This document shows, piece after piece, positions 1 to 16,540 of a stretch of 24,819 bases of DNA (the stretch's first letter is position 1; each line of letters starts with the position of its first letter). This stretch comes from a virus, in the IMG/VR virus record IMGVR_UViG_3300007960_000173, positions 1-24,819 of that record; one strand, given 5' to 3'. The position numbers and the translations under genes are program-made. The notes under the pieces were generated by a model, which searched no databases, was not told where the DNA came from, and worked only from the letters and a program-made list of their open reading frames with translations.

Positions 1-64
1 AAACCAAATCACGGATAGTAATAAGCCCAGCATCAGTAGAAACAAGAGTATCACCATCCAAGCA
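1..64 (-). other. Intein N-terminus inserted in NrdJ (partial)
   Basis: Directly after NrdJ Cys317 the frame reads CLDGDTLVSTDAGLITIRDL. This matches intein block A: nucleophilic Cys1, Gly-Asp-Thr, then a Gly and a hydrophobic strand ending in Asp-Leu. The insertion point (Asn-Pro-Cys / intein) is the site used by the known NrdJ-1 type inteins, whose C-extein restarts at Ser-Glu-Ile. Only 21 residues are visible, so it cannot be decided whether the intein is mini, carries a homing endonuclease, or is split. Confidence 0.85.
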
Positions 65-1015
65 ACAAGGATTCGTTCCCCAGTCTTTATCATTGGAGAA
101 ATAAAATCCCGGCTCTCCACTACCTGATTCTTTTACTCGCTCCCAAAGATCTTGGAAGTATTCTTTAGTAATCCTATGACGAAGGAGCACAACTGAGTTG
201 TTTGCTCTACCTCTTTGTGGTGCTGTCTCCCACCAGTTCCCTGTCTTGGCTGAAATCATTTCTTGGTCGTCAGCAGAGAAAAGGGAAATAAGGGCAGCAC
301 GGCGGATACCACCAGCCAACACAGCATCGGCAATGTGGCAAATCATATCGTGAACTTCGATAGTGGTAAGCTTGTCGCCGTTTTCCTTGGCTTCAAACAT
401 ACCTTGCAGTTTCACAAGGCATTCTTTTAGTGGCTGTGGTCCGGGGGCTTTACCGCCAGAAGTAACAAGGCGAGCACCCTTTGGTCGAATGTCTGAGTAG
501 TCAAAGCGGAGCTTGGAACCGCCTTGGAAGTAAGAGCGAACCAAAGCCTTGACTGAATCTGCCCAGCCCTCGATAGAGTCATTCACTAAGAAGCGACGGG
601 TTCGCTTTGAGTTTGGCTTTTGGATTACTGGGAGTTTCTCTACATGGTGCTTCTGAACACTATAGCCTACACCAGTTCCGCCGAGAAGAAGAAACATAAT
701 CTCTCCGAATACTCGCCAGTCATCGATTGGTGCGAAGGCACAGTTGTAAATACGGTTTGGTGCTACTTCAATTGGTTTGCCACCAAACTGCATTGACCGC
801 ATAGAAGGAAGTACCTTCTTTTGGTACACCATTTCGTAAGCAGACTCAATCTCTTCTGCTAGTTGTGGAAACTTCTTCTGGTGCATTTCCTTGTTTCTAT
901 CGACAATCTCACTCCAAGTTTCTCTCCTCTCCACTTCAGGAAGATAGCGAGCATACTTCATGTGGACTGTGATGTCCGATAAAATGTCTCTTGCTACTTT
1001 ATGTTTATCTGTCAT
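1..1015 (-). CDS. nrdJ: Class II ribonucleoside-triphosphate reductase, N-terminal part, interrupted by an intein (partial)
   Basis: Adenosylcobalamin-dependent ribonucleotide reductase, which makes deoxynucleotides for phage DNA synthesis in the host cytoplasm. The 338 readable residues begin at an ATG with an AGAGG Shine-Dalgarno, 2 bases beyond the helicase stop, and run off the window. Family features seen are SMRSMQFGG (71-79), NCAF with Cys92 as the likely first redox cysteine, the LLLGGTGVGYSV core (109-120), the DYSDIRPKGARL stretch (172-183) and GTNPC (313-317). Cys317 in Asn-Pro-Cys corresponds to the thiyl-radical cysteine. The usual Glu does not follow; residues 318-338 instead start an intein (CLDGDTLVS). 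The pattern fits the monomeric RTPR/NrdJ type better than NrdA, which is inference because the B12 domain and C-terminus lie outside the window. Last gene of the visible replication string. Confidence 0.9.
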   Translation of the reverse strand, partial: MTDKHKVARDILSDITVHMKYARYLPEVERRETWSEIVDRNKEMHQKKFPQLAEEIESAYEMVYQKKVLPSMRSMQFGGKPIEVAPNRIYNCAFAPIDDWRVFGEIMFLLLGGTGVGYSVQKHHVEKLPVIQKPNSKRTRRFLVNDSIEGWADSVKALVRSYFQGGSKLRFDYSDIRPKGARLVTSGGKAPGPQPLKECLVKLQGMFEAKENGDKLTTIEVHDMICHIADAVLAGGIRRAALISLFSADDQEMISAKTGNWWETAPQRGRANNSVVLLRHRITKEYFQDLWERVKESGSGEPGFYFSNDKDWGTNPCCLDGDTLVSTDAGLITIRDLV

Positions 1016-2634: not shown

Positions 2635-3603
2635 TTATCCCCCTTTGCTCTCTACGGATATCCTTTTGAATAAAGTAAATAAGTCGTTCCAGTCGTAAAC
2701 TCCAAAGCCATCCTCAATCATCATTGCTCTCACACCAGATTTGTTGAAGTTGAACTCTGGATTGTTTAGCATTCGCCTAATGTACTGAGCACTCTGGGCT
2801 GATATGTTTGGAACATACAACTGCATCATTTTGTAGTTCTTTTCGATTATGTCTCTTTTCTCGACAACATTCTTGAAGACCTTGAGTTTGCTATCGACAC
2901 CCTCGGCAAAGTCAACTAGCTCCTGTATGGTATACGATTTCTCCTCGGAAAGGAAAGGAAATCGCTTGGATACAGTCGCCAAACCTGCTCCACCAATGCC
3001 GGGAAGGTTATCACTCTTGTCCCCTGCTATTGCTCTCGCAAGTGCGAAGTTTGTTGGGTGGATCTCAAACTGGTCGAGGATCCTTTTCTTGTTTAGGATT
3101 TCCTTCTGGATTGGTCTATACAAGATAGTTGTATCGTCACATAACTGAATAAAGTCTTTGTCAGAACTTAGAATAATCTTGTGGTACTCGGACAAGGCTT
3201 GAGACTGGGAAGCCAAAGCAATAATGTCGTCGGCTTCCACATTCTCAACATAAGACTGGAGGATTGGCATTTCGTTTAGATATTCGATTAGCCGCTCCTG
3301 TTGCCAGTTCTTATTGTCCTCCTGCTCGCCAGCAGTCATGTTGTGTATGTCTCTGTTTAGTCGGACTGGTTTTCTTCCTGCCTTGTAGTTTTTGTCGATG
3401 CTCTTTCGTTTCTGTGAGCCACCGTCCCAAGCTACGAAGATTAGGTCTGGGTTGATTGTCCGACAGACAGCCTGTAGTGATTTGATAAAACCTTTTGTGC
3501 CGCCAATGGGCTGACCATTTGTAGACAGGCTGGGGTCTACAATATAGTTTCTCATGAAAAGGTTTAGTGCATCAATGAGAAGTGCTCTTTTCTTATTTGC
3601 CAT
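2635..3603 (-). CDS. rnh: 5'-3' exonuclease / RNase H (PIN-FEN family, T4 Rnh-like)
   Basis: Structure-specific 5' nuclease that removes RNA primers and flaps from Okazaki fragments. Its 322 aa compares with 305 in T4 RNase H. Metal-site motifs are all present: LLIDALNLF (8-16), AWDGG (58-62) with a basic RKSIDKNYKAGRK stretch after it, VEADDIIA (122-129), SSDKDFIQLCDD (145-156), and AGDKSDNLPGIGGAG (192-206), which also begins the helix-hairpin-helix DNA-binding element. The start ATG overlaps the end of the preceding acidic-protein gene by 11 bases, suggesting translational coupling because its own ribosome site is weak. T4 RNase H is likewise an RNase H/5' exonuclease that works with gp32-type SSB, which is also encoded here. 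Confidence 0.92.
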   Translation of the reverse strand: MANKKRALLIDALNLFMRNYIVDPSLSTNGQPIGGTKGFIKSLQAVCRTINPDLIFVAWDGGSQKRKSIDKNYKAGRKPVRLNRDIHNMTAGEQEDNKNWQQERLIEYLNEMPILQSYVENVEADDIIALASQSQALSEYHKIILSSDKDFIQLCDDTTILYRPIQKEILNKKRILDQFEIHPTNFALARAIAGDKSDNLPGIGGAGLATVSKRFPFLSEEKSYTIQELVDFAEGVDSKLKVFKNVVEKRDIIEKNYKMMQLYVPNISAQSAQYIRRMLNNPEFNFNKSGVRAMMIEDGFGVYDWNDLFTLFKRISVESKGG

Positions 3604-3778
3604 ACTCTAACTCGATTCCCAATTCTTTGAGGAGCTTGTCTAGTTCCTCATTTAATTTGTCTTCGTCGTCAGAGTCAGTGTAGTTGCCTTCTTCAAGAGC
3701 AGAAAGATAATAGAATGCTTCACGGATTAGTTCAGTTTTCTCTTCTAGGATCTCTCTTACTGCTTCCAAATCTTCCAT
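3593..3778 (-). CDS. Small acidic helical protein, unknown function
   Basis: I do not recognise this 61-aa protein. It is strongly acidic (a TDSDDEDKLNEELDKLL stretch plus many Glu in the first 20 residues) and its heptad-like Leu/Ile spacing suggests two amphipathic helices. It has a good AAGGAG Shine-Dalgarno at 9 bases and is the first gene after a promoter-like sequence at 3863-3891. It overlaps the exonuclease start by 11 bases, so the two are probably translationally coupled. Small acidic early phage proteins are often inhibitors or DNA mimics, but nothing here proves that. Confidence 0.7.
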   Translation of the reverse strand: MEDLEAVREILEEKTELIREAFYYLSALEEGNYTDSDDEDKLNEELDKLLKELGIELEYGK

Positions 3779-3862
3779 AGTCTTGGTCTCCTTTATTTTT
3801 GATAGACATAACTATGTTTGATTTTGGCTTTTTGCCTCTTTTTGTCTCTAACGATTTGGAAT

Positions 3863-3897: not shown

Positions 3898-4239
3898 TTA
3901 GTGGTGGTGGTAATATTTTTTCTTGTGCTTTTTCTTTTTGTACTTCTTGGTTTTGATTTTACCTTTCACAACTTTCTTCTTGTAGTGCTTCTTGTAAATC
4001 TTGGTAAACCGCTTCTTCTTGTGCTCGTGATACTTGTCATAGTGGTAGTGGCTATGCACTGAACCACCATTGTGAGAATGCCTCAAGTGATCGATAACAA
4101 TAATATAATTGTAGGAGGGGTAGATAACATGATATTCCTCATAATACTCATAAGGATCGTAATGTTTTTTGGGGGAGTGGGCAAAGGCACATCCTGACAG
4201 GAGTGCGAGAAATAAAGATAGAGTGATGACTTTTTTCAT
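3898..4239 (-). CDS. His/Lys/Tyr-rich lipoprotein
   Basis: This 113-aa protein has a textbook lipoprotein signal: MKK, a hydrophobic core (VITLSLFLALL), then the lipobox LSGC with the lipidated Cys at residue 17. The mature part is highly biased. It first has a Tyr/His/Glu-rich segment (HYDPYEYYEEYHVIYPSYN), then a histidine cluster (HSHYHYDKYHEH), then a Lys/Tyr tail with many KK and KKK runs ending in HHH. I count 16 His after the lipobox. It should be anchored in a membrane with a basic, possibly metal-binding tail. The start has a GGAGGT Shine-Dalgarno 7 bases ahead, and the gene follows uvsX by about 45 bases. No family was recognised. Possible roles are surface modification, superinfection exclusion or metal binding; all are inference. 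Confidence 0.8.
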   Translation of the reverse strand: MKKVITLSLFLALLSGCAFAHSPKKHYDPYEYYEEYHVIYPSYNYIIVIDHLRHSHNGGSVHSHYHYDKYHEHKKKRFTKIYKKHYKKKVVKGKIKTKKYKKKKHKKKYYHHH

Positions 4240-6209: not shown

Positions 6210-6238
6210 ACTATAAACAAAGTTAAAACAAAAGTCAA
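6210..6238 (-). promoter_or_regulatory. Sigma70-like promoter for ssb
   Basis: On the minus strand TTGACT is followed after 17 bases by TATAGT, about 30 bases before the ssb start. The -35 element overlaps the stop codon of the upstream gene. The block AAAAGTTCTTGACTT (6232-6246) is identical to that at 3885-3899, suggesting one regulatory class. Confidence 0.7.
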
Positions 6239-7074
6239 GAACTTTTTTCATTTTGTACGAAAGAAGTGCTCGCAATGAAATAAGCGTATTTATCAGCGTA
6301 TTGAGTGGAAAATACGCCGTAAGATACTTTTACGTCTTTTTCTTGTGGCGAATCTTTTACTTGCGTCATAATCTTATTCATCAAAGTCTTATCTGTTTTT
6401 AGTTCCTCTTCGGGAATGGCGTAATAATAACGCTTTTCCACAACATTGTCAAGAGAAAAAAACGGACTTTCTTCACCTGTTTCTGGATTTAGGATGCCGA
6501 AAGTTGAGATTCGGCAGATATCTTTGGGGTCAGACAAAGTTCCTACCACTGGCTTTGAATGGTTGAAAACATTTGTCATGTGTATGGTTGCTACGATAAC
6601 TTCATTTAAACTGTCGTAATAACCCATAATCGGTGCTCCACCCAAGATTTTATCTATCTGCTGGTTATCAACCGCATAGAACTGCTTAAAAACGCCAGAT
6701 CTAGCATATTGCTGCAACACTCCAAAAACAAGATTAGTTTGCAATCTTCTTGTCTCAGATAGAGTATCGACATCTGGGTGAATATATAAAACACTTATTG
6801 GACCTTTGCCATGGATTTGCTCTAAGACACGGAGGGCAGCACCAGAAATAATGCTAGCTCCCGATACAATAAACAGGATTTCACCTTCGACATCACGAAG
6901 ATGATTTCCAATCATGGGAAAGTTCTGCTCGTATTGTTCTGGGTGGTCGTACTTTGGCACACGAATAGTTGCGCCCTCTTCGTGGTCTATTGTGATTGCT
7001 TTGTATTGTGGGTGCTTTGAAAATGCTTTAGTCAACTTATAACCAACATTTCCTAGTCCAATTAGTATATCCAT
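6235..7074 (-). CDS. Divergent FtsZ/tubulin-like protein
   Basis: I read this 279-aa protein as a tubulin/FtsZ-fold relative. It starts with a beta-strand and glycine loop (ILIGLGNVGYKL, 3-14), then a second strand ending ITIDHEE (27-33). Residues 64-103 (GEILFIVSG, a short glycine loop, SGAALRVLEQI, PISVLYIHPDVD) resemble the FtsZ strand, T4-loop, helix, strand run. ETRRLQTNLVFGVLQQYARSG (107-127) and YAVDNQQIDKIL (133-144) match its RR...E...L / PND segment. YDSLNEVIVATIHM (153-166) resembles helix H7, and LSDPKD (180-185) keeps a T7-loop-like Asp-x-x-Asp. The GGGTGTG box is shortened and degenerate (SGASIISG, 71-78), so GTP binding is doubtful. The ATG overlaps the polymerase stop by 13 bases; a longer upstream reading lies wholly within the polymerase gene. 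A NAD-binding Rossmann protein is the alternative. Confidence 0.6.
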   Translation of the reverse strand: MDILIGLGNVGYKLTKAFSKHPQYKAITIDHEEGATIRVPKYDHPEQYEQNFPMIGNHLRDVEGEILFIVSGASIISGAALRVLEQIHGKGPISVLYIHPDVDTLSETRRLQTNLVFGVLQQYARSGVFKQFYAVDNQQIDKILGGAPIMGYYDSLNEVIVATIHMTNVFNHSKPVVGTLSDPKDICRISTFGILNPETGEESPFFSLDNVVEKRYYYAIPEEELKTDKTLMNKIMTQVKDSPQEKDVKVSYGVFSTQYADKYAYFIASTSFVQNEKSS

Positions 7075-8249
7075 AGTCTTTGCATTTTCCCATAGTTTCT
7101 GCCACCACAGGCATTTGTTCTGAATCTTCCAAAGGGCGTGTCTTGGAACTCCCAATAAATCATGTTGATAAAGTCACCGTCCTCTTCAGCATAGTCTATC
7201 ACAATACTGTCGTGAATGATAAATGCTATCTTTGACTTTTTTCCTTTTAGCATCTCGGACAAGATTATAGCCTTGTCTAAAATCAAATCACTACAAGTAC
7301 TTTGGAGTATGTAGTTGAGGGCATGATAGTGGTCGCTTGGGATTCTCCGATGATATGTAGTTTCTACGGTGTTGCCGTCCCAATAGCTCTTTACAATAGC
7401 TTCCCTATCATAGAGCTTGGCTAGCTGCTCATCTTCGGCATTTGGATTGTAAAGCCATGAAAAAATCCTCTTCTTTGCCTCATCTCTGGTTAGCTTACCA
7501 CCAAAGAGTTCATAAGAGTTGTACTCATGCATATCACCATGGGGCTGCTTCTGCCCTAGCAGACCAAGCATGACCCTGAGTTCAGCAGCATTGTAGTCTA
7601 GTTCGACTAGCCATTGGTTGTTTGGTTTGATAATCTTTCTGAACTTCTTATCCATGGTTAGGATTGGGAAGGAATTCTTTTCTGTTGTTAGTCTACCTGT
7701 CTTTGTGCCGAATACATTATACTTTATGTATGGCTCTGTTCTCATTATCTTTTTGTAGAAGTCTTTAGTTCGCTGGTCTGACAGTTCGTTGTTGAGAACA
7801 GACAAATCAATGTTTAGTTTCTGGTGCTTAAGGTCAGTGGTTATCTTAGTGATGTCGACCAAGTTTTGATAGTTATAAGGTCGCTCATATGTTTCAAGGA
7901 CATGTTGTGTGATCTTGTCTTTTATGGCACAGAATTCTTTTAAGAAGCCCTCGGGCACAAGATCAAAAAAGCAATGGTCGTTTAGAGATACCTTTGCTGT
8001 GATGAATGATTTGTAGAATGCTCCCATCTTTTTCCAGATGCGATCATAATCTTCTTTTAGTTCAGGGGGGCAGACTTCGCCTAGTGATTTTCCTTCGCAG
8101 TATATGTTGGCATAGTCCAACTCTAGTTCACGAAGAAAAGCGGCATACTTCCAAGTGGCTGTGCCGTCTTGGGGCAAGTCTTTGTAGATTTCGCCATCAA
8201 CATAAATGCCAACGCACTTTTCTTTTTCATCTAAGGTTTGGAATAACAA
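7062..8249 (-). CDS. Family A DNA polymerase, polymerase domain only
   Basis: Replicative or repair DNA polymerase with the Pol I palm and fingers. Motifs: GTKTGRLTT (181-189), motif A ELDYNAAELR (216-225, catalytic Asp218), motif B with Arg255, Lys259, Phe263 and Tyr267, the NYILQSTCSDLI stretch (312-323), and motif C IHDSIV (345-350, catalytic Asp347). The usual HDE is HDS here. Phe263 corresponds to E. coli Pol I position 762. At 395 aa it lacks the 3'-5' exonuclease domain: the first about 130 residues show no DxE, NxxxF/YxD or YxxxD motifs. The start is TTG, with AGAAGG 5 bases before it and no ATG for the next 74 codons. It follows the structural gene by 9 bases and overlaps the tubulin-like gene, so it may be transcribed with both. 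Confidence 0.88.
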   Translation of the reverse strand: MLFQTLDEKEKCVGIYVDGEIYKDLPQDGTATWKYAAFLRELELDYANIYCEGKSLGEVCPPELKEDYDRIWKKMGAFYKSFITAKVSLNDHCFFDLVPEGFLKEFCAIKDKITQHVLETYERPYNYQNLVDITKITTDLKHQKLNIDLSVLNNELSDQRTKDFYKKIMRTEPYIKYNVFGTKTGRLTTEKNSFPILTMDKKFRKIIKPNNQWLVELDYNAAELRVMLGLLGQKQPHGDMHEYNSYELFGGKLTRDEAKKRIFSWLYNPNAEDEQLAKLYDREAIVKSYWDGNTVETTYHRRIPSDHYHALNYILQSTCSDLILDKAIILSEMLKGKKSKIAFIIHDSIVIDYAEEDGDFINMIYWEFQDTPFGRFRTNACGGRNYGKMQRLWIY

Positions 8250-8258
8250 GGCGACCTT

Positions 8259-9737
8259 CTAGTAGTATTGCTTCAAATATTGTTGAATATAACTTAAAGA
8301 AGACTCTTTGTCAAGATTTAAATAAAGATTCTCTATTTTTGCGAGACTGTTCTTTACTTTCGCAGAGGATATGTTTTGCTTAAGTTCTCTTAAGCGAACT
8401 AAGAAATAAGTCTTGTACCAGAACAAGTCATCATACTGTTGATCAAAATCTTCTCTAGATATCTTGTTTCTGTAAACTTTGCTAACCTGAAGTGGGTCGT
8501 AGAAGAAGTTCGTGTTGTAAAAATCTTTTATGTCTTTTGATGTTTGACATGGCTTAGGTATCGAGACTTGAGGAAAATTAGTTGCAAACCTCTCATAAAA
8601 GTCGAACATCATGTTTTTCAGATTTTCAATATCCATGTCTTGGGTTCTATAATAATATTCATTATAGAAATCTTCATTGCTCCATGGAGTTGTATTTAAA
8701 ATCTGTAGCTGATGGATGTGTGGCTCAATACCAACGTTCGGATCATTTCCTTTTGGCGTTGCAGATGGAACTATTCTATAGTTTATGATCTGATGAGAAT
8801 GCTCTTTCGTTATGTTTTTTGGTGAGCCATGCGAATCTGTAAACCCATTTCCATTTTCATCAATAAAATATTTGTGTGCATGGGTCGAACCATCTTCCAA
8901 GTAAGGGACCGTTGTGTATTCAGTTAGCCCTTCTCTTGAAAGCCGATATAGACGAATGTAGTTTCCGATGTACTTCTTCATTCTCGGAGAGTTTATGTTG
9001 GCGACAAGTCTCCATGGTGCATGTTGATCAAGCATAAATCCAAAAGAAGCTGCTGCTGTTGCATATTCTTTGAAGTTCTTGTTGTTAACATACTTATCAA
9101 ACTTTTCATAATCACTATCATGATCTAAGTTTTCTAACTCAATGCACAATCCACTGAACATAGGATTGTAAAAAGAAGACTGAAGCATCCCTGTGTAGGT
9201 GACTGGAATGTCAAACTCTAGAAAGTTTAGGTAGAAGTTCATGAAGACATCCATGAAACTTTCGAAGTCTTTTACCATGGCTCTGGTTTGAATATCTAAA
9301 AATGTTTCATTGAAAGAATCATAAAGCCCTTCTTGGATTTGAGAGAATACTCCATCAGAATTTGTCCAAGCTTTTTTTGCAGACATGTCCATTTTAAGTC
9401 TGCCGCTGTCTTCCATCATTTTTATAATGCCTTTGGTTTTCATATAGAAAGACAATTCTTCATAAGCATCTGCAACAAAGTTTAAAGCAAACAGTGTCTC
9501 TTTGGTTCCAACCAACTGCTTGAAGTAAGCAGTGTCAGGTATCATGTATTCCTTATTCGAACTCATTGCGCCATATCTAGATTGCTGACTGTCTCTGAAG
9601 TTTATTGGTTTTGGAAACAGTGGATCTGTAGCTGTAGGATAGAAAACGTCATATCCTCTTCTTTGCCTGAAAAGATCTTTTGATGACAGCCCAGTGGACC
9701 CATATAAAGAAATGTCTTCGTATTTTTTAAAAGTCAC
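8259..9737 (-). CDS. Putative baseplate/tail structural protein with HxH motifs
   Basis: A 492-aa protein I cannot name. It is rich in Phe, Tyr, Asp and Asn. A notable segment (286-342) carries HAH (286-288), a DENGNGFTDSH loop, HSH (313-315) and HIH (340-342). Paired HxH motifs coordinate iron or zinc in several phage spikes and fibre tips, so a metal-bound element is plausible. The C-terminal 130 residues look helical. It directly follows the hub gene, whose last codons contain its GGAGGA ribosome site; the start is GTG, 6 bases after that site. Position at the end of the tail gene string suggests a baseplate wedge, hub-associated or fibre-attachment protein. Confidence 0.6.
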   Translation of the reverse strand: MTFKKYEDISLYGSTGLSSKDLFRQRRGYDVFYPTATDPLFPKPINFRDSQQSRYGAMSSNKEYMIPDTAYFKQLVGTKETLFALNFVADAYEELSFYMKTKGIIKMMEDSGRLKMDMSAKKAWTNSDGVFSQIQEGLYDSFNETFLDIQTRAMVKDFESFMDVFMNFYLNFLEFDIPVTYTGMLQSSFYNPMFSGLCIELENLDHDSDYEKFDKYVNNKNFKEYATAAASFGFMLDQHAPWRLVANINSPRMKKYIGNYIRLYRLSREGLTEYTTVPYLEDGSTHAHKYFIDENGNGFTDSHGSPKNITKEHSHQIINYRIVPSATPKGNDPNVGIEPHIHQLQILNTTPWSNEDFYNEYYYRTQDMDIENLKNMMFDFYERFATNFPQVSIPKPCQTSKDIKDFYNTNFFYDPLQVSKVYRNKISREDFDQQYDDLFWYKTYFLVRLRELKQNISSAKVKNSLAKIENLYLNLDKESSLSYIQQYLKQYY

Positions 9738-9741
9738 TTAG

Positions 9742-12711
9742 CTATCCTCCAGTTCCCTCGATGGATGGTGTGTCGTTTTGATTATTCAAGTCCCTTGTAG
9801 CCAAGGGCTTGGAATCTCCTTTGCCAATACCTCCAGTAGAGCTTTGCCACTTTGCTGTAATAGTGGTCGTCCAAAACTGTTTTTCGATTTTGTTTTCTAC
9901 ATTTGTAACTAGATAATAACCCTCAAGACCAAGGCTACTAACCAACTCTTCAGAGTCTGTATATCCAGTAATCTCTGGTAAGTTTACCGTTGAATAAATA
10001 TGCATTCCCGGATAAAATATAGCGTTTCCTACCATCTCTATTGTCAAGTCATATTGATTCCAAGCTTCTCTGTATTCTTCTCCCTTTTCCATTGCCCGTG
10101 CAGCCATCATTTCTGTTTGATAATTCTTTTTAACTTTCTGAAAAGAATAGCTTAGATCGATAGCGTCGTATGCACCACCTAGAAGAAACGAATAGATTCC
10201 TCTTTGGGCTCGCAAGTTTGTTATACTAACTCCCTTCGAAACATTCGAAGAGCCTACAGAAAAACCAACTTCATTAGTACCATACATGTAGAAATAGTTG
10301 TAAGGAGTAATCGTTTTTGCACTGTCAGACAAAACATCTACGGTTTCTATTTCAGAATATTTTTGAAGAAATCTCATGTTTTCTGGATTAGATAGGTTAA
10401 ATCTTGTGCCATATCTGTTGTCGCTTGGTCTTCCCAGATAAGCAGGATCTACTCCAAATGACAATGTTGGATCTGATTCTCCGACAAGGGGCAATGTGGT
10501 TATCTTTACTTGTACTGGGTCTTTATGGCTTTTGCCAAAGTTGTTTGTTCTTGAGTTAATTGCAGGGCTGATCAACTGCGTTGCCAAGTCTTGAAGAAAC
10601 TTGGTAACATCGTATTTGTTGATGTCTTTTTCTACAATATTCTTTTTGAAAAACCTCAAGAAATATTGCAAACTTATCGGGAAGTCAGCTAGATTAATAT
10701 TGACTTTTTTATTTGGATCGCTGCTTTGAGGATCTGGTGCAGTTATAGAGCCCAATATCAAACCTAACTTTGCTTCATTCATCTTTGCATACATCGTGCC
10801 ATTTGATTCATTAGCCAAAGCTGCGTCGATGATATCTCCAAGATATACATAATAAAACTTATAAGTATCTCCAACTTTTGATATGGGTCCTCCCCCGGCA
10901 AGCCTAGCATTGACGAAAGATCGCAACTCATCTTCTTCAGTAAAGCCATCGCCGATAGCCTTTTTTAGCTGTGCTACAGCTTTTGCAGCATCATTGGCTG
11001 TCACTTGTTGAATTATGTTTTCCGTTTTTTTAATGTTCTTTGAAGCGTTCTTTGCTGCTTTTGCCTTTGCTCCTTGCACTTCTGCTTGACTTTTCGCTAA
11101 TGAATCTTCAGTAGCAGCTTCCGGAGTTAGTACTGTTACTGATTGAGCAGCTAGTTCTGCTTCTTGTTGAATGAGTGCTTTTATTTCTTCAGTCGCTTCA
11201 TTAGAAAACAAAACTAGATCTTTTGTTTTCAACTCAGTTTCATACACTTTATTGCTTCTAAATATATTTTCTAGAATAATATTATATTTTGCTATTTTAT
11301 TTTGAAAGATTAATCTATCATTAATCTCTTGTATTTTTTTATCGTAATCGGCTTTAGCAGTTGAATACTTTGATTCAATGTCTGTAAGGGCTTCTTGGAT
11401 TGCTTCGATATTAGGAGCATTAGAATTATCTTCAAAAAGATCTTGCCTAACGCCTGCACCTGTATCATTTGCAAGAGCCACTAAAGCAGTTGAATAAGCA
11501 GCGTTTCCTTTATAAACTCTTTTTTTAAAATCCTCTAATTGCTTTCGCTTTGAAGGATCAACTCTAGAGTCAGCCATTGGAGTTGTGATGCCTTGTTTTT
11601 CTAAAGTTTGCGTTATTTGGTTATAACCCCTAGCAGCGGAGAGAGCAGCTTGAATCGCTGGCAGATTAGACTGGATTACTTCAAGATCTTGTTTTAAGCT
11701 GGTAGCTATGTTTCTGCCGCCTAAATCTTCCGATATTTGTTGACTTGACATGATCTTACCAGCAAATATATCGAAAGCAGCTTTCTTGCTGAAGTCTTCG
11801 ATAAAAGAAACGTAGTTTAAAGTCAAGAGCACAGAAGAATCATTTTCCTGAACTGATATATCATAGTCTACCAATTCAAGCTCAAGCAATATATTGTTTA
11901 TTTCCGATGAGACTTCTTTTAAATACTTGGTTGTTTCTGGATCATGATTGAGATCATTGTATTCATGATTGGATGTGTCATATCCAATCGCAAGCCTGAG
12001 TGAATATCCCTCGTATGCCTCTTGATTGGTTGTTCTTCCTTTCGAAAATGTGATTAGATTCTTGAGACTAAATCCGTTGGCGTGGGCGTAATCAAAAGCC
12101 AAAAGACTTTCTAAAGTAAACTGTATAGTTACATCTACCATTCTCGATGCAGCGAAAGGATTTTGATTTTTTAAAGTAAAGTCCAATCCAGTTAAGCCAT
12201 ACTTTAGCTTTTCATAGTTTGCGCCAGAGCCATCAAGCGCCCTCAGTAGCTCCTCTCTTCTTTCCGGACTGGCAGTTCTTAGCTCTTGTGCTCTTTCAAC
12301 TTGCTTGCTTGTGTTTTCGTTTATCTTCTTTTTGATATTGAAAAAGTTATCTAAAGGGACCGCTTCTGTTCTTAAGATTTGAGATTTGTCTAATGGATCT
12401 CTATACACTCTCTGCATTTTTATAACAGGAGTCATTTCTCCATCGAGCAATCTACCTTTTCTAATAAAAGTTATTTTGTCCAACCCTTTGGCTGCACGGA
12501 TCTCGGAAAGAACTAGGGGGGAATTGGGGTGTTCATATATTTTGAAGCCCTGAGCACTGTATCCATTTAGATTTTGGTCTCGCCCAAAGTAAGCATAACT
12601 ATGCAGATCACCATATAGGATATTTTGTTCTGCTTGGATAAAGTCAATCTTGTCTCTTTGATTGCCAGAAAGCTTGTCTTGAACAGCTTCAAGCGTTTTT
12701 GAATCACTCAT
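9742..12711 (-). CDS. Large baseplate hub protein (gpD/gp27-like)
   Basis: A 989-aa virion protein in the slot held by the hub in contractile tails: tape measure, tube initiator, LysM protein, then hub, as in P2 and PBSX. The C-terminal about 150 residues fit a hub beta-domain (AIFYPGMHIYSTVNLPEITGY, EGYYLVTNVENKI, QFWTTTITAKW). The N-terminal part (about 30-320) is mixed alpha/beta. Between them, about residues 325-600 form a long Ala/Glu/Lys/Gln-rich helical region with coiled-coil character that hub proteins usually lack. I see no lysozyme or peptidase motif. It starts at an ATG with TAGGA ahead, just after the LysM gene. The hub call rests on gene order and C-terminal pattern, not a confident homology match. 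Confidence 0.6.
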   Translation of the reverse strand: MSDSKTLEAVQDKLSGNQRDKIDFIQAEQNILYGDLHSYAYFGRDQNLNGYSAQGFKIYEHPNSPLVLSEIRAAKGLDKITFIRKGRLLDGEMTPVIKMQRVYRDPLDKSQILRTEAVPLDNFFNIKKKINENTSKQVERAQELRTASPERREELLRALDGSGANYEKLKYGLTGLDFTLKNQNPFAASRMVDVTIQFTLESLLAFDYAHANGFSLKNLITFSKGRTTNQEAYEGYSLRLAIGYDTSNHEYNDLNHDPETTKYLKEVSSEINNILLELELVDYDISVQENDSSVLLTLNYVSFIEDFSKKAAFDIFAGKIMSSQQISEDLGGRNIATSLKQDLEVIQSNLPAIQAALSAARGYNQITQTLEKQGITTPMADSRVDPSKRKQLEDFKKRVYKGNAAYSTALVALANDTGAGVRQDLFEDNSNAPNIEAIQEALTDIESKYSTAKADYDKKIQEINDRLIFQNKIAKYNIILENIFRSNKVYETELKTKDLVLFSNEATEEIKALIQQEAELAAQSVTVLTPEAATEDSLAKSQAEVQGAKAKAAKNASKNIKKTENIIQQVTANDAAKAVAQLKKAIGDGFTEEDELRSFVNARLAGGGPISKVGDTYKFYYVYLGDIIDAALANESNGTMYAKMNEAKLGLILGSITAPDPQSSDPNKKVNINLADFPISLQYFLRFFKKNIVEKDINKYDVTKFLQDLATQLISPAINSRTNNFGKSHKDPVQVKITTLPLVGESDPTLSFGVDPAYLGRPSDNRYGTRFNLSNPENMRFLQKYSEIETVDVLSDSAKTITPYNYFYMYGTNEVGFSVGSSNVSKGVSITNLRAQRGIYSFLLGGAYDAIDLSYSFQKVKKNYQTEMMAARAMEKGEEYREAWNQYDLTIEMVGNAIFYPGMHIYSTVNLPEITGYTDSEELVSSLGLEGYYLVTNVENKIEKQFWTTTITAKWQSSTGGIGKGDSKPLATRDLNNQNDTPSIEGTGG

Positions 12712-13861: not shown

Positions 13862-16540
13862 TTATCCCAGTTCTCTATTCATTGCTCTCACAACTTCTTT
13901 TTGAAACTGTCTTCCTCCAATGTTAAGACCAACCTCAATAGGTCTTTGGTCTGTTGGCTGCTCTGTATTACCTGCTATTTTTTCGAGGACTTGCACCATT
14001 CTTTCGAATGTTCCATCTGATTTTCTAGTATCCCTTAGAGCGTTTGCTGTCTCCTTTAATGTGGTCGCTAAGTTGCCAGATTCCTGTGCTCTTATGACAC
14101 TCATAGGCTGAACAAACTCTCCTCTAGGCGAGGGTCCTTCTCCTGCAATAAATGAGGAAGTAATATTGTCTCCACCTACCCTGAACGATTGTGGCGTAGT
14201 TGATGTTGCAGGCATTTGAATCCCTGTTTGACCTGTTAAGGAAGTTACAATATTGCCTGTAGACAACTCTGTCAATCCAATTTGACCAACCGGGGTTGTT
14301 TTTTGTGGCTTGGGTATAGCGGCTCCTGCTGCCGCAACACCGACTCCAAAGCCAGCCAAAGCGCCGATGGGACCTCCCGCTGCGAAACCTGCCAGAGCAC
14401 CTACGACTCCACCGAGTGTCATGCCAAATAATCTTGTTTCGTTGTTTGCTCCATTAATAAAATCGGATATCTCACCGAATAAAGAAAAGGCTCCATATAT
14501 GGCAGCACCGATTGCGATGATAGGGAACATTGATGTAGCAAGAGCCTTAAATGCTCCGCTTAGTGTCGTCACCGGGACTGTTGCGGCAGCAGATGCGGCT
14601 CCAGTTGAAGCTATCCCAGCAGAACCGGCTGCTCCTGATGGTGCTGCTGCTGCCATCGATGCGTTTAGACTGGTTTGTGCTGCGGTTTGCATAGGCACCA
14701 TTGACATAGTTTTTTGATCAAAAACATATTTTGCTTCTTGTGCTGCCACATTCCTTACAATCGAACTTGTATTAGCTTCAGTTGCCGCTGTGCTAGCCAC
14801 AGTCTGGGCTGTAGTAAAGCCCATGGCTGCACCTATGGCTTGAAGCCCTGATCCAGTAGTGGTGTAAAAAGCCTTTAACTTCATTAAGCCAGAGATTCCA
14901 GCAACAACTGCTGAAATGCCAGCGCCAACTGCTGCGAACTGCCCTGCAACACTGTTCATAAACTCTGAAAGTGGCGCAAAGAACGCAGCTAACTGTTCTA
15001 CTCCTGCACTTAATTTGTCAACCGCACTGCTAGCTTCTGACACCATGTTGGCAAACTGCTCTTCCTGAGACACCATCGCCTCTTGTGGAGACAGCGTTCC
15101 TTCCATCATGGCACGAAGATTTCCAATACTAATACCGAAACTGTCTGCAAGCATTTTTTGCTCGAAGAAGTTCATGTTTTCGAAAGACTTTCCGGCGGCA
15201 TCAAAGCCACTTCTTAACATTTCAAGTTGAGCAAATGGACCCTCGGCTGCTGCCATCACTAAATCAAAAGTATTGACAAAAGAACCACCCATCACAAGAT
15301 TAAAAGAAGCAACTTTATCTGCCGCTTGATCAAACGTATCCAAACCTTCAGAAAGACTGAAAAGGTTTTGTCCGAGTTCTCCAACTTCTAGACCCAAAGA
15401 TTTAGCTGTCTTTGCGGTTCTCATAAAGATTTCCGGAGCTTGTCGACCGAAAGCAGCGAGCTTAGGCTCCAGTGCAGTGAACTGTTGAGCCAGCACTTGT
15501 GGAGGGATTCCTGCCTGCCTTCCTTCTACTGCAAAGCGTTTAAGTGTAGACTCGGCTTCGGAGACTGCCATCCCCAATCCAGAAACAAGAAAATCAAAAC
15601 TATCACCTGTTGTTCTGGTATCTACTCCGAGTTTTTCTAGACCGGCGGCAGTTGCAGCCAATTGCACTCTAGTCTGAGGAGCTAATGTCGAGAACTTTGT
15701 GAAGTTGACAAAGAGGTCTTGAAATGCCTCAGATGCATCTTGTAAGCCAATGCCCAACTGTGATGCTTGCCTAAATGTTGCGACCATTTCATTGTTGAAA
15801 TCTCTAGAAGCACCTGTCGTTTTTACAAACGAAGTGGTCAACATATCCATCCTGACAGTTAGTTCTGTCGTATTTGAAATAAAGAACGAGAACAAGTTTC
15901 CAAAGTCTAACATCTCGCCGAGAGAAGACACAGCACCTTGTATTGCGGCGTCAAAACTTCCTGTTTCGCTCCTAGATCGTATTAAACTACCAACAATCCC
16001 TTGATCTAAGTCAGGTGTTAACTTAATCAGGCTACCCATAGATTCAACAAGACCGGCACCTGCTCTAACACCGTCGTTCATTGCGGCTGTAAGTCTTTGT
16101 TGTTCTTGTACATTTTCCCTGACTAGTTCGAGTCTTTGATTTAAAGCCTTAAGCTCTGCTCTAGCCTCATCAGTTCCCTCTGAAACAAGCCTTGTTCTTT
16201 CTTCTTGAAGTGATTTAATCTCATCTAAGAGCGCTATCTGATTGTTGTAGTTGTTTAGGGTGATTCTTCCAACCCTCTGAGCTTCAAAAAGTTGGTTCTT
16301 ATATGTATCAACCATCTGCGCTGATTTGTCAGAAGTGGCTGAGATAATCTCGTTTAACTCTTGTTGTAAACGCAGTTCTTCCTTGTACTGATTAGCTAAC
16401 TGTTCGGCTTGCGTAATGTGCTCTCCGTTAAGTCTGCTCACTTCAGCCTGAAGTTTCACCTGCTCTTTCAAAGATTCTCTTGCTTTATCAAGAAGCTGGT
16501 TGATTATCTCTTGCTGTTCTGGGGTTGTTTCATCTGCCAT
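13862..16540 (-). CDS. Tail tape measure protein
   Basis: An 892-aa tape measure protein that sets tail length, fills the tube lumen and is ejected with the DNA. The first about 165 residues are long charged helices (coiled coil, Gln/Glu/Lys/Leu-rich). The middle is helical with repeated Phe/Gly/Ala patterns. Hydrophobic Gly/Ala-rich stretches follow at about 545-570, 668-690 and 700-738; these could insert in the host membrane. The C-terminus carries an ordinary charged helix (RDTRKSDGTFERMVQVLEKIAG). It is the largest gene of its block apart from sheath and hub, and sits in the expected place before the tube initiator and hub. The ribosome site is weak, 10 bases after the preceding stop. 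No lysin domain was seen. Confidence 0.88.
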   Translation of the reverse strand: MADETTPEQQEIINQLLDKARESLKEQVKLQAEVSRLNGEHITQAEQLANQYKEELRLQQELNEIISATSDKSAQMVDTYKNQLFEAQRVGRITLNNYNNQIALLDEIKSLQEERTRLVSEGTDEARAELKALNQRLELVRENVQEQQRLTAAMNDGVRAGAGLVESMGSLIKLTPDLDQGIVGSLIRSRSETGSFDAAIQGAVSSLGEMLDFGNLFSFFISNTTELTVRMDMLTTSFVKTTGASRDFNNEMVATFRQASQLGIGLQDASEAFQDLFVNFTKFSTLAPQTRVQLAATAAGLEKLGVDTRTTGDSFDFLVSGLGMAVSEAESTLKRFAVEGRQAGIPPQVLAQQFTALEPKLAAFGRQAPEIFMRTAKTAKSLGLEVGELGQNLFSLSEGLDTFDQAADKVASFNLVMGGSFVNTFDLVMAAAEGPFAQLEMLRSGFDAAGKSFENMNFFEQKMLADSFGISIGNLRAMMEGTLSPQEAMVSQEEQFANMVSEASSAVDKLSAGVEQLAAFFAPLSEFMNSVAGQFAAVGAGISAVVAGISGLMKLKAFYTTTGSGLQAIGAAMGFTTAQTVASTAATEANTSSIVRNVAAQEAKYVFDQKTMSMVPMQTAAQTSLNASMAAAAPSGAAGSAGIASTGAASAAATVPVTTLSGAFKALATSMFPIIAIGAAIYGAFSLFGEISDFINGANNETRLFGMTLGGVVGALAGFAAGGPIGALAGFGVGVAAAGAAIPKPQKTTPVGQIGLTELSTGNIVTSLTGQTGIQMPATSTTPQSFRVGGDNITSSFIAGEGPSPRGEFVQPMSVIRAQESGNLATTLKETANALRDTRKSDGTFERMVQVLEKIAGNTEQPTDQRPIEVGLNIGGRQFQKEVVRAMNRELG

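What the first reader, a model, noticed from the sequence alone, without database searches (positions are those of the whole stretch)
1..64. Intein starting exactly behind the radical cysteine of a phage class II ribonucleotide reductase
Seen: the reading frame passes from GTNPC straight into CLDGDTLVSTDAGLITIRDL, an intein block A, instead of the expected Cys-x-Glu. Known: NrdJ-1 type inteins, some of them naturally split, use this same insertion point. Inference: the enzyme is inactive until splicing, so activity of a nucleotide-supply enzyme depends on an invader at its catalytic loop. The remainder may be a mini-intein, hold a homing endonuclease, or be split into a second gene.
Basis: partly seen in the sequence, partly recalled or inferred. 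Interest (0 to 1): 0.75.

Follow-up and report, generated by a model that had tools for sequence, protein, structure and literature searches.

The report
Split mobile intein in phage reductase
The window ends inside a self-splicing parasite sitting at the catalytic cysteine of a phage's DNA-building-block enzyme, and near-identical copies in related phages show that it splits the enzyme gene in two around a DNA-cutting gene that probably spreads it: a new member of a known kind of element, caught shortly after jumping between distantly related phages.

Summary
Confirmed. On the minus strand the nrdJ frame (1015..2) runs through WGTNPC into CLDGDTLVSTDAGLITIRDLV, and the record, an IMG/VR contig, ends there. 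The NPC cysteine aligns with the radical cysteine of two solved class II reductases (C408, C322). The 64 intein bases are 64/64 identical to relative L001, whose flanking nrdJ is only 85% identical. L001 shows the rest: the N-intein stops after 101 residues, a free-standing 284-residue endonuclease gene follows, then a second ORF with a 43-residue C-intein and HN|CEI C-extein. This is a "fractured gene" with a naturally split intein. All loci with the near-identical intein keep this layout, while 79 of the 80 nearest nrdJ relatives are empty (NPCCEI). Between L001 and L082 the block has dS 0.05-0.08 while the extein is saturated, so it moved recently. The same endonuclease family (restriction-type fold) recurs in about 50 distinct fractured phage reductase genes, including the natural locus of the laboratory intein NrdJ-1. 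Two insertion registers exist one codon apart; in the other, the radical cysteine itself is the splicing nucleophile. New member of a known kind.

The parts
2..1015 (-). N-terminal half of class II ribonucleotide reductase (NrdJ) fused to the start of an intein; open at the contig end
   Evidence: PF21995 B12-dependent RNR insertion domain E 3.4e-07; L001 homologue PHROG 367 ribonucleotide reductase E 3e-70
65..1015 (-). N-extein (317 residues) ending in WGTNPC
   Evidence: 94% aa identical to L001, 92-94% to the nearest empty alleles
65..67 (-). codon (TGT) of the radical cysteine, last residue of the N-extein
   Evidence: aligned with C408 of 1L1L and C322 of 1XJE
2..64 (-). first 21 residues of the split N-intein, CLDGDTLVSTDAGLITIRDLV (Cys1 codon 64-62, block A)
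   Evidence: 64/64 bases identical to L001, where the N-intein ends in a stop after 101 residues and is followed by an endonuclease ORF and a separate C-intein/C-extein ORF

Best explanation
The window holds the first 21 residues of a naturally split NrdJ-1-type intein inserted directly behind the radical cysteine of a phage class II reductase. The gene is most likely fractured: (i) nrdJ N-half plus a ~101-residue N-intein ending in a stop; (ii) a hairpin-controlled free-standing PD-(D/E)XK-type endonuclease gene; (iii) a 43-residue C-intein plus nrdJ C-half, translated from its own Shine-Dalgarno site inside the 3' end of the endonuclease gene. The two polypeptides trans-splice through Cys1, the block G His-Asn and Cys+1 into an unscarred NPCCEI reductase. 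The endonuclease cuts empty alleles at the near-invariant radical-cysteine codons, and repair copies the whole block across. Shown by sequence: the window stub and its junction, the full layout in relatives, selection on all parts, and recent transfer of the block. Inferred: the window's own continuation, splicing activity, cleavage activity and site, and inactivity of the unspliced halves.
For: Junction and stub. 64/64 identity of the stub to L001 against 85% in the flank. L001 layout: N-intein stop at 1922, endonuclease ORF 1962-2816, C-intein/C-extein ORF 2771-3817 with LLVHN|CEIALRP. All non-redundant loci with the >=95% identical intein (L001, L081-L087) are fractured. 79 of 80 nearest nrdJ are empty and read NPCCEI, exactly the predicted spliced product. 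Splicing residues Cys1, TPDH and final HN conserved. Mobility: L001/L082 exteins 70-74% nt with 4-fold sites 42%, against 96.6-98.7% in intein and endonuclease; dS 0.045 and 0.081 against 2.9 in the extein; identity steps up at the insertion point, with at most about 30 nt of raised identity outside it. Endonuclease: invariant E182, D213, E227, K229, model pLDDT 84.6, nuclease domain nearest TnsA Z 8.3, Bax1 6.2, Vsr and I-Bth0305I 4.8, dN/dS 0.13-0.30. Hairpin at the N-intein stop/endonuclease start with different sequence but the same place in 19 of 27 loci at p<=0.04. Strong Shine-Dalgarno (AAGGAG) before the C-intein ATG in the window's group.
Against: Only 21 intein residues lie in the window; its endonuclease and C-half are unseen. 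Cis mini-inteins and an endonuclease-less split form exist at the same site in more distant phages, so the window's copy need not be complete. No splicing or cleavage has been measured. L084's hairpin is broken.
Confidence: 0.9

Rival explanations
1. The window's copy is a contiguous cis-splicing mini-intein, not a split one; it only shares its first part with the fractured copies.
For: Contiguous mini-inteins of about 140-150 residues do occur at this cysteine in other phage reductases: L198, L211, L214.
Against: Those are distant (register NP|C, other RNR types). All copies close to the window (64/64, 63/64, 62/64 bases) are fractured.
Confidence: 0.05
2. The intein is a domesticated regulator: splicing gates reductase activity in time or by redox state, and selection keeps it for that.
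For: It splits the enzyme at the catalytic loop, so activity must wait for trans-splicing (structure-based inference). A hairpin and separate start sites would allow timing.
Against: 79 of 80 near relatives lack it. The block is far younger than its hosts and carries an endonuclease under purifying selection, as expected of a parasite. NrdJ-1 is reported as ultrafast (PMC13123727, PMC7090010), which leaves little delay to exploit.
Confidence: 0.04
3. Assembly chimera: the contig end joins the nrdJ of one phage to the intein of another population in the same metagenome.
For: The contig stops 64 bases into a stretch that is near-identical between distantly related phages, which is where assemblies break or cross over; L081 and L083 contigs also start within 250 bases of it.
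Against: The same junction is seen in several independent metagenomes (L001, L082, L084, L086), and the stub is short enough for single reads to span the junction.
Confidence: 0.04
4. A dead remnant: an N-intein without partner, so that this phage has lost NrdJ.
For: Remnants of the endonuclease exist in relatives (L210, L232).
Against: In every locus long enough to show it near the window's group, a C-intein/C-extein ORF follows. The N-extein ORF is intact and 92-95% identical to its nearest relatives.
Confidence: 0.02

Closest known systems
NrdJ-1 split intein (GOS metagenome; PDB 8UBS, 9OMB)
   Same: Same host gene family, same insertion point behind the radical Cys, split into ~105 + ~40 residues, homologous N-intein (E 3.7e-14); its natural locus, recovered here as L152 (104/104 identical), has the same endonuclease family between the halves.
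   Different: N-inteins only about 40-45% identical; Cys at +1 (CEI) where NrdJ-1 has an obligate Ser (SEI); a different phage nrdJ lineage (NPCCEI against NPCSEI).
Fractured genes (Dassa et al. 2009, Nucleic Acids Res 37:2560; paper not held here, known from memory and from citations in PMC3653736 and PMC7090010)
   Same: A conserved enzyme gene broken by a split intein with a free-standing endonuclease gene in between; PMC3653736 cites 7 nrdA and 2 nrdJ cases in ocean metagenomes.
   Different: The window itself shows only the start. The endonuclease of this family lacks the invariant His expected of the Vsr-related EDxHD family that I recall as that paper's new family; whether Dassa et al. 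had already listed this nuclease type could not be checked.
mobE in nrdA of Aeromonas phage Aeh1, and hairpin-controlled T4 homing endonucleases (PMC2988022)
   Same: A homing endonuclease splits a phage RNR gene; an RNA hairpin at the endonuclease's start sequesters its ribosome-binding site.
   Different: Aeh1 NrdA works as two pieces without splicing and mobE is HNH; here a split intein rejoins the halves and the nuclease is of restriction-type fold.
Inteins in NrdA of Campylobacter phages (CP220 group, PMC3653736)
   Same: Match the query from TNPC into the N-intein at 38-40% identity in the class Ia enzyme.
   Different: Class I enzyme; described there as inteins of the nrdA gene, arrangement not examined here.

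Membership tests
Intein (Hint, class 1) | Cys/Ser at intein position 1 directly after the host residue | tested here: met
   Cys1 at window 64-62
Intein (Hint, class 1) | Block B (TxxH), block G His-Asn, Cys/Ser/Thr at +1 | tested here: met
   In L001: TPDH, VHN, CEI; not readable in the window, which ends after block A. Pfam PF14890 Intein_splicing matched at E 3e-07 and 3e-08 but just under its cut-off
Intein (Hint, class 1) | Homologues without the insert read straight through, giving the spliced product | tested here: met
   79 of 80 nearest relatives read NPCCEI
Naturally split intein, NrdJ-1 type | N- and C-inteins in separate ORFs | tested here: met
   Met in L001 and all close relatives; not testable in the window itself
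Naturally split intein, NrdJ-1 type | Trans-splicing activity | not testable with these tools
   Needs protein; NrdJ-1 itself splices in trans (PMC13123727)
Fractured gene | Free-standing endonuclease ORF between the split intein halves | tested here: met
   L001:1962-2816 and 51 non-redundant loci; not testable in the window itself
Class II ribonucleotide reductase (NrdJ) | Radical Cys in the finger loop NPCxE and homology to B12-dependent enzymes | tested here: met
   Aligned to C408 of 1L1L and C322 of 1XJE; PF21995 above its cut-off
PD-(D/E)XK nuclease (L001 endonuclease) | Restriction-type fold with D...ExK catalytic residues | tested here: met
   Invariant P212-D213 and E227-x-K229 plus E182 in 42 sequences; predicted domain nearest TnsA Z 8.3 and other members of the fold. 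Foldseek alone gave nothing under E 0.001, so the fold call rests on motif and Z together
EDxHD / Vsr-like homing endonuclease | Conserved xHD catalytic pair | tested here: not met
   No invariant or nearly invariant His in 42 sequences; fold similarity to Vsr and I-Bth0305I is only Z 4.8
Homing endonuclease | Site-specific cleavage of the empty allele | not testable with these tools
   Indirect only: block transfer with sharp borders

The most novel reading that the evidence does not exclude
One dedicated mobile family, a split intein plus a hairpin-controlled PD-(D/E)XK endonuclease, specialises on the radical-cysteine codon of phage reductases of several types. It has shifted by one codon more than once: where the residue after the radical cysteine is Cys or Ser it sits behind it (27 of 27 elements), otherwise it sits before it, so that the radical cysteine itself is the +1 splicing nucleophile (30 elements). 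Host catalysis and parasite chemistry then use the same thiol. The element passes through split+nuclease, split without nuclease and re-fused mini-intein states at this one site.
Probability: 0.6. Interest if true: 0.6.

Novelty: new member of a known kind. Interest (0 to 1): 0.5.

Why it matters
The window's element belongs to the family that gave the widely used ultrafast split intein NrdJ-1, so relatives with Cys or Ser at +1 and either insertion register are ready-made variants to test. Near-identical inteins in hosts whose reductase genes are saturated with silent changes show natural, recent movement of a whole fractured block, which is direct evidence that the fractured layout is a working mobile element and not a relic. 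The states seen at one site (empty, fractured with nuclease, nuclease decayed, split without nuclease, continuous mini-intein) make the question of how split inteins arise testable with real sequences.

Tried and rejected
Window megablast against cultured phages: no match. Endonuclease profile against bacterial and archaeal genomes: 20 pattern hits, none a relative. Endonuclease against cultured phages: only weak partial hits. Pfam for the endonuclease: only sub-threshold hits (DUF790/Bax1, Phage_endo_I); sequence profile against the PDB: best T7 endonuclease I at E 0.16. First model of the endonuclease with 10 sequences was poor (pLDDT 72) and was replaced by one with 42. Statistical test of register against the residue after the radical Cys on the tree: only 2-3 independent changes, too few for significance; the plain Fisher p 3e-13 ignores relatedness and is not used as proof. 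Rfam on L001: nothing, so no group I intron or known RNA family in the block. Sigma-70 promoters and terminators inside the block: none. Virus neighbours through the 989-aa structural protein: none. A late-promoter reading of the TATTTATA motif in the hairpin loop was considered, but it lies in the opposite orientation and was not pursued. The strict rule 'register follows the host residue' was rejected: three register-B elements have Cys or Ser available (L127, L205, L211); only the one-way rule (register A needs Cys or Ser) stands.

Full report
What is in the window. The window is a complete IMG/VR record of 24,819 bases. On the minus strand an ORF starts at 1015 and is still open at base 2. 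Its 338 residues are 317 residues of a class II ribonucleotide reductase ending in KDWGTNPC, followed by CLDGDTLVSTDAGLITIRDLV. The cysteine of NPC is codon 67-65 and intein Cys1 is codon 64-62. Upstream on the same strand lie a DnaB-type helicase, an exonuclease, a UvsX-like recombinase and an SSB, and further on tail sheath, tube and baseplate genes, so this is a contractile-tailed phage.

The insertion point. A full-length empty relative (L006) aligned with solved class II enzymes puts the NPC cysteine on C408 of the L. leichmannii enzyme (1L1L) and C322 of the T. maritima enzyme (1XJE); these are the radical cysteines by established knowledge. 79 of the 80 nearest viral relatives run through this point as NPCCEI. 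The one exception, L001, is the closest relative of all and carries the same insert.

The rest of the element, read in L001. The 64 intein bases of the window are 64/64 identical to L001, against 85.4% in the N-extein. In L001 the N-intein ends with a stop after 101 residues; a 284-residue ORF (1962-2816) follows; then a 348-residue ORF (2771-3817) starts with a 43-residue C-intein, ends it with LLVHN and continues as CEIALRPYQFCNL, the C-half of NrdJ. Joining NPC to CEI gives exactly the empty sequence. A search with the N-intein gave 22 further loci; those with at least 95% identical intein (L081-L087), and the 71-72% identical ones long enough to show it, have the same three-ORF layout. For the window itself this is an inference, though a strong one.

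Relation to NrdJ-1. The nearest solved structure to the N-intein is NrdJ-1 (8UBS, E 3.7e-14). One of the loci found through the endonuclease, L152, has an N-intein identical to NrdJ-1 over 104 of 104 residues, followed by an endonuclease of the same family and the C-intein ending in HN|SEIVL. The window's element is thus a relative of NrdJ-1 at the same site, with Cys instead of Ser at +1.

The endonuclease. 42 diverse family members share invariant E182, P212-D213, E227 and K229, a PD-(D/E)XK pattern. A model of L001's protein (pLDDT 84.6) has a helical N-terminal part with a helix-turn-helix-like segment (82-117) and a C-terminal nuclease domain closest to TnsA (Z 8.3), then Bax1, VRR-NUC, Vsr and I-Bth0305I. 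There is no invariant His, so the EDxHD motif is not met. dN/dS of 0.13-0.30 says that it is maintained. Almost every family member found in viral contigs sits in the same place, between the halves of a fractured reductase at the NPC cysteine; the exceptions seen are L174 and L175, short ORFs without such neighbours. Hosts include class II (PHROG 367) and reductases matching a 'ribonucleoside-diphosphate reductase large subunit' family (PHROG 84).

Evidence of movement. L001 and L082 have N-exteins 69.9% identical with only 47 of 111 fourfold sites unchanged, while N-intein, endonuclease and C-intein are 98.7, 96.6 and 97.7% identical. dS is 0.045 and 0.081 in intein and endonuclease against about 2.9 in the extein. 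Identity rises at the insertion point, with at most about 30 bases of raised identity outside it. The window shows the same against L082: 70.5% in the extein, 98.4% in the stub. This pattern is what homing leaves; vertical descent cannot give it. It also offers a reason why the contig ends here: near-identical sequence in several phages breaks assemblies (inference).

Expression layout. The C-intein ATG of L001 has a strong Shine-Dalgarno site (AAGGAG) inside the last codons of the endonuclease gene; the endonuclease ATG has none that is obvious. Between the N-intein stop and the endonuclease start there is a stem that exceeds dinucleotide shuffles at p<=0.04 in 19 of 27 loci. Its sequence differs from group to group (TTTCGGGTTTTAG in L001, TTTTTTGGCGGGCACA in L112, TTTGCGGGCTCCAAT in L089) while the place and the pairing stay; L001 folds at z -3.05. 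[quoted passage not shown] I infer the same role here.

Two registers. Among 57 non-redundant elements, 27 sit behind the radical cysteine (NPC|C...HN|[C or S]E) and 30 sit before it (NP|C...HN|C x E). The first register occurs only where the next host residue is Cys or Ser; the second occurs with Gly, Ala, Val, Phe and, three times, Cys or Ser. Since splicing needs Cys, Ser or Thr at +1 (PMC13123727), an element behind the radical cysteine can live only in hosts with a nucleophile there, whereas one before it can use the invariant radical cysteine itself. On the endonuclease tree the register changed at least three times, two of them on well-supported branches. The window belongs to the first register.

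Other states at the same site. L198, L211 and L214 carry contiguous mini-inteins of about 140-150 residues, L177 a split intein whose halves are separated by only a short stretch without endonuclease, and L210 and L232 endonuclease remnants. Together with the empty alleles these are the stages expected of a homing cycle.

Verdict. The element is a new member of a known kind (fractured gene with a NrdJ-1-type split intein). The parts that may be new, the one-codon register rule and the dedicated nuclease family with its conserved hairpin, are properties of the family and not of the window alone. Dassa et al. 2009 was not available, so priority could not be checked.

Noticed in passing
L102:4495-8577 (IMGVR_UViG_3300045911_000113): nrdJ with three inteins: a mini-intein (YN|CLSADT...GN|CSFL), the fractured split intein at NP|C, and a third, split without endonuclease, at KPEG|C...HN|TTSL; the enzyme would be assembled from three polypeptides by two trans-splicing events and one cis-splicing event.
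   Followed up: partly
L133:3675-5345 and L166:1788-3620: The C-half ORF of a fractured nrdJ carries another insertion, RPYQFC|VS(S/P)(N/D)TPLITK..., that looks like a further intein a few residues downstream.
   Followed up: no
L198:5001, L211:5013, L214:3868: Contiguous mini-inteins at the same catalytic cysteine; in L198 a methionine stands where fractured relatives start their C-intein ORF, which suggests re-fusion after loss of the endonuclease.
   Followed up: partly
L177:705-2084: Split intein at the same site with only a short stretch and no endonuclease between its halves.
   Followed up: partly
L088:8203-8817: A second free-standing endonuclease-like ORF (HNH-like CALTGMEL...DRIDSGKPY) lies directly behind the C-half of the fractured nrdJ.
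   Followed up: no
window 7062-8249 (-): A short family A DNA polymerase ORF (395 aa), with its 5' exonuclease-like gene apart at 2635-3603; the following 306-aa ORF 6235-7155 overlaps it by about 90 bases when TTG starts are used and has no PHROG match.
   Followed up: no
window 9742-12711, 13862-16540, 8259-9737 (-): Three large structural-type proteins (989, 892 and 492 aa) have no PHROG match, and the window has no megablast match among 50,697 phage records: a poorly sampled contractile-tailed phage lineage.
   Followed up: partly
window 3898-4239 (-): A 113-aa ORF with a lipoprotein-like signal (LLSGCAFA) and a very His-, Lys- and Tyr-rich remainder; no PHROG match.
   Followed up: no
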